64,000 nucleotides of DNA from an uncultured Vicinamibacterales bacterium (GTDB lineage: Bacteria; Acidobacteriota; Vicinamibacteria; Vicinamibacterales; UBA8438), in assembly GCA_958295905.1 (NCBI GenBank), contig OY282382.1, positions 5,018,910 through 5,082,909 of the forward strand. The letters run 5' to 3'. Positions 3,281 through 59,664 of this stretch are shown in pieces (position 1 is the stretch's first letter; each line of letters starts with the position of its first letter). The position numbers and the translations under genes are program-made. The notes beneath the pieces are model-generated. The model was not told the DNA's origin, searched no databases, and worked only from the letters and a program-made list of their open reading frames with translations.

Positions 3281-3626
3281 CGCGGCAGCGAGGGCGCCTC
3301 GAGCGGCGAGATGCTCGTGGCGGTCAGGCCGGAGCCGTCTCCCGCGGTCCATGTTGCAGTCGTACCCGTGGTCCCGACAGGCATGCTCGTGGCGGTCAGG
3401 CCGGAGCCGTCTTCCGCGAGCGGCGACCGTGTCCCTCCGGGGTATGATGGGTCGGATCGCGCGGCACTCGAGCCCGGGCAGGCGGCCGCGCCGACGATGT
3501 ACGCGGTGACGTCCGCGGCGTCGCCCATCCGTGGTCGGGACCCGCGGCAGCGCCAGACCGCGGCCACGGCGAGTCGCTCCTCGTGAACGACTTGCAGGCA
3601 CCGATGCAGCCGTGCCGGCCGGACGA
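3281..3626. repeat. intergenic region with a 30-bp direct repeat
   Basis: No credible gene. A 30-bp direct repeat starting ATGCTCGTGGCGGTCAGG lies at 3311-3340 and 3383-3412 (period 72 bp). Only two copies are present, so this is a local tandem duplication and not an array. Confidence 0.75.
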
Positions 3627-20441: not shown

Positions 20442-20820
20442 GGTCGGTATCCGTCGTCAGAGGTGTACGGCGCCGGGTGAACGCGCCACTTTAGCACGGC
20501 GGGACGACGGGTTGCACAGCCGACGGCCGGCGGCGGACGGGGTGCGGACCGGCTCGTGGCAATACCGATCCGTCCTCCGGCGGCGGCCCGTCCACCCGCG
20601 GTCGCAACGGGTCCTCGGAATCCCCGCCGATAATGGTGAACCTCGAACGGTCGGGTCCTGGGACTCCGGACGTGCGGAATCGCGGCTCCCACGCGGCGCC
20701 CGGCCGGTCGGCAAGACAGTGGCGACCCGTCGAATCGGGGACGGGCCGTCCCGCGCAGTCGGCGTGGGATGCTCCTGCCGGGAGCGGCCAGAGTCGTTGA
20801 CGCTGAACATGCGAGCCGCC
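20442..20820. other. intergenic region with a decayed MITE-A copy
   Basis: 379 bp between two minus-strand genes. The right half is occupied by the degenerate element at 20651-20777. No gene is visible in the left half. Confidence 0.6.
20651..20777 (+). mobile_element. MITE-A copy 1 (left end lost)
   Basis: Aligns with the intact copies from GGGTCCTGG through the right terminal repeat GGCGTGGGATGCTCCTG. The left terminal repeat is not recognisable. It is the most diverged copy, and no target duplication can be assigned. Confidence 0.7.
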
Positions 20821-21675
20821 TCAGCGGCGGTCGAGGGGTTGCAGGAGACCGGCGAATCCCGCGATCAGGTTGCGCCGGCCCTCGCGTTCGATCGGACGCT
20901 CGCCCAGGTAGATGTCGAAGAGGGCGCGGCAGAGGGACGGCGACTCGATGGGCACCCGCTCGGCGCCGTCCACCGTCATGGCGAGGCGGCCGGCGGGACC
21001 GCACGAGAAGACGATCTCGACGCCGCGCCGCACCTCGTCCACGTCGAGGTAGCCGCGCAGCGTCGCCAGGGCCGCCGCGGCGTCGCCGTCGGCGCCGCGC
21101 CCGGTCCGCGGCATGCGCGGCCGCAGCGCGTCGTCGAACGCGCCGGCCACGTCGCCGCCGCTGACGGTTCGCGTCATGACGAGCCGGAGGGCCATCCCGA
21201 AGTCGAGATCCAGCAGGCGCCGGGTGAAGCGCTCGTCCCGTCCGAGCGCCTCGGCCGCAGCGCCGGCGAAATCCGCGAGCGCGGCCCGCGCGCCGTCCGC
21301 ATCGACGTAGAGGCCGAAGGCGTAGACGTTCACTCGGAAGATGGTGCGCTGCCGGATGCCGGTCCCTATCAGCCGGTGAGGTGTCGTGCCGCCCGGCGGG
21401 GTGAGGGCGACGGGGAAGAGGGTTCCGCTCTCGGGCTCGCGGACCGTGTCGGGCGCGGCCGGCTGGCCCGCGGCTCCTGCGCCCGCCGCCCGCTCGGCTG
21501 CCCCCGCCACTGCACGCACCGCCTCCGGCGCCGCCGGTTGGCCCACGGCTCCCGCGCCCGCCGCCCGCTCCGCCGGCCCTGCGCTTGTCGGCGCCGCTGA
21601 CTGACCCGCGGCGGGCGGCGACGCGGCGATCAGCCCGAGCGCCAGCAGACGGCCGACGAGTCGCCGCGCGGTCAT
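20821..21675 (-). CDS. chalcone isomerase-like domain protein, secreted
   Basis: 284 residues. A signal peptide ('LLALGLIAASPPAAGQ') is followed by an Ala/Pro/Gly linker with two near-identical units around 'AERAAGAGAxGQPAAP' (about residues 35-75). The CHI-like domain then opens 'GTGIRQRTIFRVNVYAFGLYVD', which matches bacterial chalcone_isomerase-like proteins. Bacterial members are secreted, and their function is mostly unknown; no flavonoid chemistry should be assumed. The ATG at 21675 lies in the last copy of a tandem repeat shared with the end of lgt. It is the third gene of a pepF-lgt-CHI minus-strand operon. Confidence 0.8.
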   Translation of the reverse strand: MTARRLVGRLLALGLIAASPPAAGQSAAPTSAGPAERAAGAGAVGQPAAPEAVRAVAGAAERAAGAGAAGQPAAPDTVREPESGTLFPVALTPPGGTTPHRLIGTGIRQRTIFRVNVYAFGLYVDADGARAALADFAGAAAEALGRDERFTRRLLDLDFGMALRLVMTRTVSGGDVAGAFDDALRPRMPRTGRGADGDAAAALATLRGYLDVDEVRRGVEIVFSCGPAGRLAMTVDGAERVPIESPSLCRALFDIYLGERPIEREGRRNLIAGFAGLLQPLDRR

Positions 21676-21922
21676 CTCCCCCGTCCCCGCTCAGCGGCGG
21701 GTCCGTCCCGCCAACGGCCCCCGGCACGGCCGACGAGTCGCCGCGCGGTCATCTCCCCCGTCCCCGCTCAGCGGCGGCGTGTCCGTCCCGCCAACGGCCC
21801 CCGGCACGGGCGGCGGCGCGGCCGACAGTCGCGCGGTCATCTCCTCCGTCCCCCGTCCCCGCTCGGCGGCGGCGTGTCCGTCCCGCCAACGGCCCCCGGC
21901 ACGGGCGGCGGCGCGGTGTCGA
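21673..21922 (-). repeat. three tandem 77-88 bp units spanning the lgt stop and CHI start
   Basis: Three units each contain GTCATCTC, CCCGTCCCCGCTC, GTCCGTCCCGCCAACGGCC and CCCCGGCACGG. Each unit carries an ATGACCGCGCG start-like sequence in minus sense (ATGs at 21840, 21752 and 21675). The first overlaps the lgt stop as ATGA, which suggests the ancestral overlap was pushed apart by duplication. Confidence 0.8.
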
Positions 21923-32639: not shown

Positions 32640-32788
32640 GTCGTCGCAGGCAAAATAATGGCGGGTCCTGGGGCGCCGGACGTGCGGAATCGTGGGTCTC
32701 ACGCGGCGCCGGCCCATCGGCAAGACGGTGGCGACCCCTCGAAATCGGGGGCGAAGCCGTCACGCGCAGCCAGCGTGGGATGCCCCTG
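32640..32788 (+). mobile_element. MITE-A copy 2 (left end decayed)
   Basis: Matches the intact copies from GGCGGGTCCTGGGG to the right terminal repeat AGCGTGGGATGCCCCTG. The left end has diverged; CCCACGCC near 32613 may be its relic. It lies directly upstream of the antitoxin-like gene. Confidence 0.75.
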
Positions 32789-36524: not shown

Positions 36525-36707
36525 GGGGTGCACGTCAGATTTGTGAAATGACTGCCCCGGCACGGTCAGGTTGGCGATTTTCGTGCCGTTCTCGGCTTCG
36601 AGGCCCTCCCGAACGGGTCCTTTGGGGCTTTGGCGCCATGGGATGCCTCGGGGCCGGCCACGCCGGATACTCCAGCGGCGGCGCCTCACTTTCTTGACGT
36701 GCACCCC
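36525..36707 (+). mobile_element. MITE-B copy 1, intact with target duplication
   Basis: Perfect 13-bp terminal inverted repeats, GGGGTGCACGTCA (36525-36537) and TGACGTGCACCCC (36695-36707). They are bounded directly by a 7-bp duplication, GTCCATG (36518-36524 and 36708-36714). The element is 183 bp and has no coding capacity. A diverged inverted copy lies at 59313-59485. Confidence 0.9.
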
Positions 36708-45677: not shown

Positions 45678-45850
45678 CAGGGACATCCCACGCTCCGTCA
45701 CCGCCGTGCGCAGGCAGCATCGTTGCGGGTCCCGGGGCTCCGGACGGGCGGAATCGTGGGTCTCACGCGGCGCCGGCCGGTCGGCAAGACGGTGGCGCCC
45801 CCTCGAATCGGGGGCGGGCCGTCACGCGCCGTCAGCGTGGGACGCGCCTG
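45678..45850 (+). mobile_element. MITE-A copy 3, intact with 9-bp target duplication
   Basis: 173 bp. The left terminal repeat CAGGGACATCCCACGCT is opposed by AGCGTGGGACGCGCCTG at the right. It is directly flanked by CCGCGCCCC at 45669-45677 and 45851-45859. Internal hairpins include CCGG-GGCT-CCGG and CGTG-GGTCT-CACG. No coding capacity. Confidence 0.88.
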
Positions 45851-55366: not shown

Positions 55367-56323
55367 ATGACCAGGTACCGCCGTCTCATCGCCGCCGCGC
55401 TTGCGTCGGCCTGCATCGCCGTCGCGGTCGCGGCCGGACAACAGAACCCGGGGGGCCGGTTCGCGGGGGTCGAGCTGACGATCGTGCCCGCGGCCGGCAA
55501 CGTCCACATGTTGCAGCGTCCGGGTGGAGGCGGCAACGTCGGGGTCTTCACGGGGCCGGACGGGGTGCTGCTCGTCGATTCGCTGTTCGCGCCGCTGGCC
55601 GAGCGGTTGATCGCGGCGGTGCGGACGATATCGACCGGAGAGATCCGCTTCCTCGTCAACACCCACGTGCACCCGGACCACATCGGCGGCAACGAGCCGC
55701 TCGCCGGCAGCGACGTCCTGATCTTCGCCCACGACAACGTCCGCGTCCGCATGCTCGACCGGCTGCGCTTCCCGCGCCGGGGCGGCAGCTTCGCGCCGCA
55801 GCCCGCAGCCGGGGCGCGGCCCGTCGTCACCTACAACGACAGCGTGAGCTTCCACTTCAACGGCGAGGAGGTGCGCGCGTTCCTCGCCCCCCCCGCCCAC
55901 ACCGACGGCGACACCTTCGTCCACTTCCCGGAGGCGGACGTGCTGCATCTCGGGGACGTCTTCCGGACCACGAGCTACCCGATCATCGACGTCTACAACG
56001 GCGGCACGGTGGCGGGCACCATCGAGGCCCTCGAGACGGCGCTCCGCCTCGCGGGACCGGACACCCGGATCATCCCCGGCCACGGCCTCCAGGTCGTGGG
56101 CCGTGACACTCTCGTCGACTTCCTGGACATGATCGTCGACGTCCGCGGCCGCGTTCACGACCTGATCTCCGAGGGCTTCACCCTGGAAGAGGTGATGGCG
56201 GCGGCGCCGACCGCCGCCTACGACGCCCAGTGGGGACAGGAGGCGACGTGGACCGCCAACGACTTCGTCCCCATCGTGTTCCACGAGCTCGGCGGCGGCT
56301 CGCTGTACCGGGGCAACGAGTAG
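55367..56323 (+). CDS. secreted MBL-fold metallo-hydrolase
   Basis: 318 residues with a signal peptide ('LIAAALASACIAVAVAAGQQ'). 'NTHVHPDHIGGNE' is the zinc-binding HxHxDH motif; 'HTDGDTFVHFPEADVLHLGDVF' and 'IIPGHG' complete the site. This is the broad MBL hydrolase group; a beta-lactamase function should not be assumed. The 3' end is copied in the tandem duplication that precedes fic. Confidence 0.88.
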   Translation: MTRYRRLIAAALASACIAVAVAAGQQNPGGRFAGVELTIVPAAGNVHMLQRPGGGGNVGVFTGPDGVLLVDSLFAPLAERLIAAVRTISTGEIRFLVNTHVHPDHIGGNEPLAGSDVLIFAHDNVRVRMLDRLRFPRRGGSFAPQPAAGARPVVTYNDSVSFHFNGEEVRAFLAPPAHTDGDTFVHFPEADVLHLGDVFRTTSYPIIDVYNGGTVAGTIEALETALRLAGPDTRIIPGHGLQVVGRDTLVDFLDMIVDVRGRVHDLISEGFTLEEVMAAAPTAAYDAQWGQEATWTANDFVPIVFHELGGGSLYRGNE

Positions 56324-56609
56324 GCCCGAGGAGCCCGGGGCCATGGCGTCCAGCTCGCCGGTTGCCCGGAAAACCGGCGCTGGTTAAAGTTTAGGAGGAA
56401 AATTTTAGCAAGATCACGCCCTGTTAAAGTCCCTTGAACTTGCGCGGAGGCGGAATGCAGCCCCATCGTGTTCCACAAGCTCGGCGGCGGCTCGCGGTGC
56501 CGGGGCTGGTTGTCCGGAAAACCGGCGCTGGTTAAAGTTTAGGAGGAAAATTTTAGCAAGATCACACCCTGTTAAAGTCCCTTGAACTTGCGCGGAGTCG
56601 GAATGCAGC
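56269..56609 (+). repeat. tandem duplication spanning the MBL 3' end and fic leader
   Basis: A 96-bp core (56366-56461 and 56514-56609) runs from CCGGAAAACCGGCGCTGG to GGAATGCAGC, the fic start region; it is nearly identical in both copies. The preceding ~46 bp, from the MBL 3' end, are also duplicated (56269-56314 and 56461-56506). About 45 bp are missing from the second copy. The core contains an AT-rich TTTAGGAGGAAAATTTTAGC. Confidence 0.85.
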
Positions 56610-57769: not shown

Positions 57770-57810
57770 CGGCGCCCGCACCATCGCGCATCTGTCGAAA
57801 TGTGATGCGG

Positions 57811-57983
57811 CAGGACCATCCCACGCTCCGCCCCAGCCGTGCGCAGACAGAAATCGTGGCGGGTCCTGGGGCTCCAGACGTGCGGAATCGTGGGTCTCAC
57901 GCCGCGCGGCCGGTCGGCAAGACGGTGGCGACCCCTCGAATCGGGGGCGGGCCGTCACGCGCAGTCAGCGTGGGATGCCCCTG
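57811..57983 (+). mobile_element. MITE-A copy 4, intact with 11-bp target duplication
   Basis: 173 bp from CAGGACCATCCCACGCT to AGCGTGGGATGCCCCTG. Flanked by ATGTGATGCGG at 57800-57810 and 57984-57994. The perfect long duplication indicates a recent insertion downstream of fic. Confidence 0.9.
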
Positions 57984-58037
57984 ATGTGATGCGGGCCGCC
58001 CCTTGCCTTGTCCGGCCCAGGGGTTTATCTTCCTGCA

Positions 58038-59312: not shown

Positions 59313-59485
59313 GGGTGCGCATCAAGACAGCGAACGCCGCCGTTGGAGGTATCCGGCGCGGCCGGCCGAGGCGCCCATCGCGCCGAAGCCCGAAGGCCGG
59401 TTCGGAGGGTTCGAGGCCGAGAACGGATCGAAATCGCCAATCCGGCAGCGACAGGGCGGTCGTCTCGAAATCTGACGCGCACCCC
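59313..59485 (-). mobile_element. MITE-B copy 2 (inverted, diverged)
   Basis: The reverse complement aligns over its whole length with 36525-36707, including the ends GGGTGCGCATCA and TGACGCGCACCCC. The terminal repeats are now imperfect and no target duplication remains. A MITE-A element is inserted at its right end. Confidence 0.8.
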
Positions 59486-59490
59486 GGCGG

Positions 59491-59664
59491 CAGGACCATC
59501 CCACACTCCGCCACCGCCGTGCGCAGGCGGAATCGTGGCGGGTCCTGAGGCTCTGGACGTGCGGAATCGTGGGTCTCACGCGGCGCCGGCCCGCCGGCAA
59601 GACGGTGGCGACCCCTCGAATCGGGGGGCGAGCCGTCACGTGCAGTCAGCGTGGGACGCCCCCG
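59491..59664 (+). mobile_element. MITE-A copy 5, intact with 9-bp target duplication
   Basis: 174 bp from CAGGACCATCCCACACT to AGCGTGGGACGCCCCCG. Flanked by CCCCGGCGG at 59482-59490 and 59665-59673. The left duplication includes the last four bases of MITE-B copy 2, so the insertion is nested. Confidence 0.88.

What the first reader, a model, noticed from the sequence alone, without database searches (positions are those of the whole stretch)
57800..57994. Recent insertion of a 173-bp MITE-like element (MITE-A) with an 11-bp target duplication
The element 57811-57983 has opposed ends CAGGACCATCCCACGCT and AGCGTGGGATGCCCCTG. It is bordered on both sides by ATGTGATGCGG. Inverted ends, a flanking duplication, small size and no coding capacity meet the definition of a non-autonomous transposon. 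Copies 3 and 5 show 9-bp duplications. The family could not be assigned to a known IS.
Basis: seen in the sequence. Interest (0 to 1): 0.8.

Follow-up and report, generated by a model that had tools for sequence, protein, structure and literature searches.

The report
Mobile mini-element and stray CRISPR spacers
The 173-base repeat is a real, very abundant non-autonomous transposon of an uncultured acidobacterium; following it up also showed that the same genome carries dozens of short insertions shaped exactly like CRISPR spacers that were written into the wrong place.

Summary
Observation confirmed: 57811-57983 is a 173-bp element with opposed 17-bp ends and an exact 11-bp flanking duplication. 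It belongs to a family of about 260 near-full copies (about 370 with fragments) in a 6.3-Mb acidobacterial genome. 78 of 105 near-full copies have an 8-12 bp target duplication, mostly 9-10 bp, against 7 of 2100 random sites. It is a MITE. Its ends (CA at 1-2, T at 9) and duplication length fit the IS4Sa subgroup of the IS4 family. No autonomous element with the same ends was found, so the parent is inferred. 'Recent' is not supported: the copy is 96% identical to consensus, the family average.

Unexpected: some copies contain ~36 bp of unique DNA flanked by an exact ~36-37 bp duplication. The same structure recurs genome-wide (about 13 per Mb; 0 in 0.9 Mb of other genomes). Duplication lengths peak at 36 and 37, with a few at 28: the repeat lengths of the genome's three CRISPR arrays (36, 37, 28). 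Filler lengths equal the arrays' spacer lengths. Sister species have single-copy, filler-free sites. Best reading: CRISPR spacer integration at non-CRISPR sites, mainly by two type I-G systems, with MITEs about ninefold over-represented as sites.

The parts
57811..57983 (+). MITE-A copy 4, full length, 173 bp
   Evidence: blastn and end match; 96.0% to family consensus
57800..57810 (.). target-site duplication, left, ATGTGATGCGG
   Evidence: sequence
57984..57994 (.). target-site duplication, right, ATGTGATGCGG
   Evidence: sequence
57811..57827 (+). left terminal inverted repeat CAGGACCATCCCACGCT
   Evidence: 384 exact occurrences of the end motif in the genome, 0 in control
57967..57983 (-). 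right terminal inverted repeat (AGCGTGGGATGCCCCTG on + strand)
45678..45850 (+). MITE-A copy 3, full length, 9-bp duplication CCGCGCCCC
59491..59664 (+). MITE-A copy 5, full length, 9-bp duplication CCCCGGCGG
32645..32788 (+). MITE-A copy 2, left end missing
20652..20777 (+). MITE-A copy 1, left end missing
3311..3346 (.). first copy of the 36-bp duplication (X) of a misplaced-spacer-type insertion
   Evidence: genome scan; single copy without filler in sister species G001
3347..3382 (.). 36-bp unique filler between the two copies of X
3383..3418 (.). second copy of X (one mismatch)

Best explanation
The element is one copy of MITE-A, a non-coding 173-bp DDE-type transposon that is moved in trans. 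Shown: conserved 17-bp inverted ends, 9-10 bp target duplications at most copies, about 260 near-full copies on both strands, no coding capacity, no clear match in sister species. Inferred: a transposase of the IS4Sa subgroup (IS4 family) binds the CA......T-type ends, excises or copies the element and joins it to staggered target cuts 9-10 bp apart, which host repair fills into the duplication. The parent IS has probably been lost; the resident 1290-bp IS4 element has related but different ends (CACTnnTGTCCCACA) and the same duplication length, and is only a possible helper. After insertion, MITE copies act as harmless landing sites: some received other insertions, including ~36-bp unique segments flanked by a 36-37 bp duplication, best explained as spacer integration outside the CRISPR array by the genome's type I-G Cas4/Cas1-Cas2 machinery.
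For: Ends, duplication and copy number. Duplication at 78/105 copies vs 7/2100 controls. IS4Sa signature in the literature is ends CA------T with 8-10 bp direct repeats (PMC2266710), which MITE-A meets. Resident IS4 element: 1290 bp, 12 copies, NF033592 at 288 bits, TIR sharing CA and TCCCAC at the same positions, 9-bp duplications. ISAs1 transposase absent from the genome. Misplaced spacers: sharp peak of X(36-37)-filler(34-41)-X, arrays with 36-, 37- and 28-bp repeats and spacers of the same lengths, Cas typing, empty sites in sister species, no hits in 0.9 Mb of other genomes.
Against: No full-length IS with the MITE-A ends was found; about a third of the genome was read base by base, and the context-filtered end search of the whole genome gave only point variants of MITE ends. 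MITE-A interior has no similarity to the resident IS. No exact pre-insertion allele for 57811-57983, because the left neighbour gene is absent in the sisters. The IS4Sa end signature is short (three bases), so the family assignment rests on little sequence.
Confidence: 0.8

Rival explanations
1. MITE-A derives from another cut-and-paste family with 8-10 bp duplications and C-starting ends, such as ISAs1, rather than IS4.
For: ISAs1 also has C-starting ends and 8-10 bp duplications (own knowledge). ISAs1-type transposases occur in 4 of 162 genomes of the order.
Against: No ISAs1 transposase in this genome. The ISAs1 loci of relatives show no MITE-A-like end near the gene. The IS4Sa signature is met.
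Confidence: 0.2
2. The repeat is a REP/BIME-type or structured RNA repeat spread by another route, and the flanking 11-mer is coincidence.
For: It is high-copy and folds with its ends paired.
Against: Duplications flank 74% of near-full copies against 0.3% of random sites. Folding is only modestly better than shuffles (z -1.9 and -2.6). No Rfam match.
Confidence: 0.03
3. The X-filler-X structures come from replication slippage or template switching, not from Cas1-Cas2.
For: The genome is rich in tandem duplications, and sister G002 shows a filler-free 72-bp tandem duplication at the window:3311 site. In two cases the filler is a copy of DNA from elsewhere in the genome, which template switching could also give.
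Against: Slippage has no reason to fix the duplication at 36-37 bp and the filler at 32-42 bp: 42 cases in that filler range against 29 for all other sizes up to 260. The lengths equal the genome's CRISPR repeat and spacer lengths, including a minor 28-bp class. Genomes without type I-G Cas4/1 have none.
Confidence: 0.12

Closest known systems
IS4 family, IS4Sa subgroup (De Palmenaer et al. 2008, PMC2266710)
   Same: Ends CA------T and about one-helix-turn target duplications (8-10 bp); a resident IS4 element of the genome has ends sharing CA and TCCCAC at the same positions.
   Different: No transposase gene; 173 bp instead of 1150-1750 bp; no parent with the same 17-bp ends found.
Bacterial MITEs such as Chunjie, QMITE, ERIC (review PMC10969869)
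   Same: Small, non-coding, inverted ends, direct repeats, high copy number (ERIC up to 711 copies per genome).
   Different: Different sequence and host; about 260 near-full copies in one acidobacterial genome; some copies carry insertions of CRISPR-spacer geometry.
Spacer integration at non-CRISPR sites by Cas1-Cas2 (Nivala et al. 2018, cited in PMC11788318 and PMC9456107; in vitro in PMC6895254)
   Same: A spacer-sized segment between two copies of a repeat-length target sequence, outside the array.
   Different: The reports read here concern Cas1-Cas2 overexpression or in vitro assays; here there are about 13 per Mb fixed in a wild genome, mostly with type I-G repeat lengths, and enriched in MITEs. 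The Nivala paper itself was not held and could not be read.

Membership tests
MITE (miniature inverted-repeat transposable element) | terminal inverted repeats | tested here: met
   17-bp ends, 384 exact genome occurrences of the motif, 0 in control
MITE (miniature inverted-repeat transposable element) | target-site duplication | tested here: met
   78/105 copies vs 7/2100 random sites; modes 9 and 10 bp
MITE (miniature inverted-repeat transposable element) | small, no transposase | tested here: met
   173 bp; longer copies are explained by nested insertions or internal duplications
MITE (miniature inverted-repeat transposable element) | related autonomous element with the same ends | tested here: inconclusive
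   not found in about 33% of the genome read directly nor by whole-genome end search with non-MITE context
MITE (miniature inverted-repeat transposable element) | element-free allele in relatives | tested here: inconclusive
   only two short weak partial matches in 60 related genomes, none in the same genus; at this locus the sisters lack it but their left flank differs
IS4 family, IS4Sa subgroup | ends CA------T | tested here: met
   CAGGACCAT / CAGGGGCAT against table 1 of PMC2266710
IS4 family, IS4Sa subgroup | 8-10 bp direct repeats | tested here: met
IS4 family, IS4Sa subgroup | DDE/YREK transposase | not testable with these tools
   element has no gene and no parent was found
ISAs1 family | ISAs1 transposase in the genome | tested here: not met
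   0 matches to NF033564; controls ring
Non-CRISPR spacer integration by Cas1-Cas2 | duplicated target has CRISPR-repeat length | tested here: met
   peaks at 36 and 37 bp, minor 28-bp class; arrays have 36-, 37- and 28-bp repeats
Non-CRISPR spacer integration by Cas1-Cas2 | insert has spacer length | tested here: met
   fillers 34-41 bp; array spacers 34-43, 34-41, 35-42 bp
Non-CRISPR spacer integration by Cas1-Cas2 | filler-free, single-X allele | tested here: met
   window:3311 in G001; L215:18048 in G001 and G002
Non-CRISPR spacer integration by Cas1-Cas2 | captured-DNA origin of the filler | tested here: inconclusive
   one 36/36 and one 35/39 (97%) match elsewhere in the genome, one weaker; most have no source in the third of the genome searched; two tested against viral contigs gave none
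Non-CRISPR spacer integration by Cas1-Cas2 | dependence on Cas1 | not testable with these tools
   needs an experiment; correlation only: 0 in genomes without type I-G Cas4/1

The most novel reading that the evidence does not exclude
The chromosome of this acidobacterium has accumulated on the order of 80-150 CRISPR spacers integrated outside CRISPR arrays by its own two type I-G (and one further type I) adaptation systems. The insertions survive mainly in neutral DNA such as MITE-A copies, where the same sites are hit repeatedly. The genome would then be a natural long-term record of CRISPR integrase infidelity and a possible source of new mini-arrays.
Probability: 0.75. Interest if true: 0.75.

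Novelty: new member of a known kind. Interest (0 to 1): 0.58.

Why it matters
The MITE itself is a new high-copy family and ordinary in kind. The insertions found in it matter more: integration outside the array is known mainly from overexpression and in vitro work, so its rate, site preference and fate in nature are open. A genome with dozens of such events makes these questions countable: how strict the second cut's ruler is, which sites are hit, what fraction of captured DNA is self, and whether new arrays can start this way.

Tried and rejected
ISAs1 as the source family: no transposase in the genome, and relatives' ISAs1 loci lack the ends. Nested IS as the autonomous parent: the 1753-bp and 458-bp 'long copies' (L049) are MITE-A interrupted by a different IS and by another element. 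The 1898-bp span in L088 is two separate MITE copies. Structured RNA: no Rfam match, folding near shuffles. MITE-A in other species: no exact-pattern match in viral or species genomes, no plasmid or phage match, only two short weak partial matches (42.8 and 40.1 bits) in 60 relatives. Hairpin preference at the misplaced-spacer targets: not found (X no more stable than neighbours, P 0.36). Filler origin in viral contigs: two tested, none found. Similarity of fillers to the genome's own spacers: no convincing match.

Full report
Observation. The element at 57811-57983 is as described: 173 bp, ends CAGGACCATCCCACGCT / AGCGTGGGATGCCCCTG, bordered on both sides by ATGTGATGCGG. The window is G000:C1:5018910-5082909 of a 6.3-Mb, 3-contig genome. 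The nearest NusA proteins belong to uncultured Acidobacteria MAGs, among them a Vicinamibacterales bacterium.

Family. The end motif occurs 384 times in the genome and its reversed control 0 times. In 1.2 Mb of contiguous stretches that were not chosen for MITEs there are 50 near-full copies and 71 matches in all, which scales to about 260 and 370 per genome; 20 of the 50 lie on the + strand. Near-full copies are 83-99% identical to consensus, median 95.4%; this copy is 96.0%. Of 105 near-full copies, 78 carry a recognisable duplication: 10 bp (41), 9 bp (33), 8 bp (2), 11 and 12 bp (1 each). Only 7 of 2100 random positions give any. This is a transposon family. 'Recent' for this copy is not supported.

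Mobilising family. The literature gives for subgroup IS4Sa ends CA------T and 8-10 bp duplications (PMC2266710). MITE-A has CA at 1-2, T at 9, and 9-10 bp duplications. The genome has an active-looking IS4 element of 1290 bp with a 397-aa frame (12 copies found by PF01609, NF033592 at 288 bits). Its ends, CACTTCTGTCCCACA and CACTAGTGTCCCACA, share CA and TCCCAC at the same positions (10 of 17 bases) and make 9-bp duplications. Its interior is unrelated to the MITE. ISAs1 transposases are absent. No full-length element with the MITE ends was seen in about a third of the genome, and a genome-wide search for the ends in non-MITE context returned only point variants. So the IS4Sa-type transposase is an inference, and the parent is probably lost or in unread sequence.

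Empty site. Only two short weak partial matches (42.8 and 40.1 bits) occur in 60 related genomes; there is no match in the species-genome, viral, plasmid or phage collections.

Tandem copies. Eleven pairs lie head to tail, separated by one duplication-length gap (8-10 bp), always in the same orientation (two of the pairs, L066 and L097, look like copies of one duplicated region). Uniform orientation points to duplication between the flanking short repeats rather than re-insertion.

Insertions in MITE copies. Several longer copies (231-278 bp, and copies with a partial second end) contain ~35 bp of unique DNA and a second copy of ~36-38 bp of adjoining sequence. An unbiased scan of 1.66 Mb and then of 2.06 Mb with the CRISPR arrays masked for direct repeats showed that this is genome-wide. 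There is one sharp peak at 70-76 bp spacing. For duplications of 33-40 bp there are 42 cases with filler 32-42 bp against 29 for all other filler sizes up to 260 bp. With filler 33-42 bp the duplication length peaks at 36 (11) and 37 (13), and there is a small class at 28 (3). The rate is 16 in 1.2 Mb of contiguous stretches, 0 in 0.40 Mb of two genomes of the order that lack type I-G Cas4/1, and 0 in 0.50 Mb of 80 loci of other species.

CRISPR systems. The genome has three cas1 genes and three large arrays. A: 88 repeats of 36 bp, spacers 34-43. B: 199 repeats of 37 bp, spacers 34-41 with one of 30. C: 105 repeats of 28 bp, spacers 35-42 with one of 48. A has a Cas4g/Cas1g fusion (815 bits), Cas2, Cas3g, Csb1, Csb2. 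B has Cas4, Cas1, a Cas2-like ORF and Cas3g. Both are type I-G. C has a Cas1b-like Cas1 and a Cas3'-like helicase. The duplication lengths of the scattered insertions match the three repeat lengths, and filler lengths match spacer lengths.

Direct evidence of insertion. At window 3311-3418 the sister G001 has a single X and no filler; at L215:18048, beside an lpd-like gene, G001 and G002 have a single X. One filler is a 36/36 copy of DNA elsewhere in the chromosome (L113:19341 from L210:7723-7758), a second matches 35 of 39 at 97%. Ends of X are G or C in 55 of 60 cases (P about 1e-4 against 70% background), in line with the guanine preference reported for Cas1 integration sites in PMC6895254. 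Six of 53 events lie in MITE-A, which covers 1.2% of the sample (0.66 expected, P 5e-5). Three copies were hit at the same place, positions about 136-173 (L073, L221, L091). Hairpin propensity does not explain target choice. Whether MITEs are preferred targets or only safe places where insertions survive is not resolved.

Standing. MITE-A: certain as a MITE, probable (about 0.6) as IS4Sa-derived. Non-CRISPR spacer integration: strong inference from geometry, three matching repeat lengths, sister alleles and controls; Cas1 dependence is untested. Integration outside arrays is known from laboratory work (Nivala et al. 2018, cited in PMC11788318 and PMC9456107, original not held; in vitro in PMC6895254). 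I found no report of it at this density in a natural genome, but the library is partial.

Noticed in passing
window 3311-3418: 36-bp duplication around a 36-bp unique filler; sister species G001 has one copy and no filler. CRISPR-spacer geometry outside any array.
   Followed up: yes
G000:C1 (L203 7900-14600; L205 2378-17008; L207 15135-20000 with L208 1-2150): Three large CRISPR arrays (88, 199 and 105 repeats; 36, 37 and 28 bp), two of them beside type I-G cas genes.
   Followed up: partly
window 36526-36707 and 59313-59484: Second small inverted-repeat family (ends GGGTGCACGTCA...TGACGTGCACCC), 36526 copy with an apparent 8-bp duplication GTCCATGG; the second copy ends 6 bp before MITE-A copy 5.
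   Followed up: no
L140 4623-4900 and L049 491-2243: MITE-A copies interrupted by an IS (461-aa transposase in intact copies) or by a short derivative with ends GGAGTCTGCGCCGCAG; this end motif occurs about 100 times in 2.06 Mb.
   Followed up: partly
L066, L097, L101, L111, L132, L133, L139, L212, L218, L219, L220: Head-to-tail MITE-A pairs sharing one 8-10 bp duplication between them, always in the same orientation.
   Followed up: partly
L139 12397-12540, L206 8303-8472, L218 6355-6586, L069 5251-5426: Two X-filler-X events next to each other, looking like incipient mini-arrays; in L139 and L206 the two duplications have different lengths (28-29 and 36-37 bp).
   Followed up: no
window 56269-56609: 151-bp tandem duplication at the end of a metallo-beta-lactamase-like gene; one unit carries an extra 42 bp. 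Sister G002 has a single unit.
   Followed up: no
window 21440-21916: Degenerate tandem repeats of 75-95 bp in a GC-rich stretch.
   Followed up: no
G002:C407:1600-2500 (L275): At the site orthologous to window 3311 the sister G002 has an independent 72-bp tandem duplication without unique filler.
   Followed up: partly
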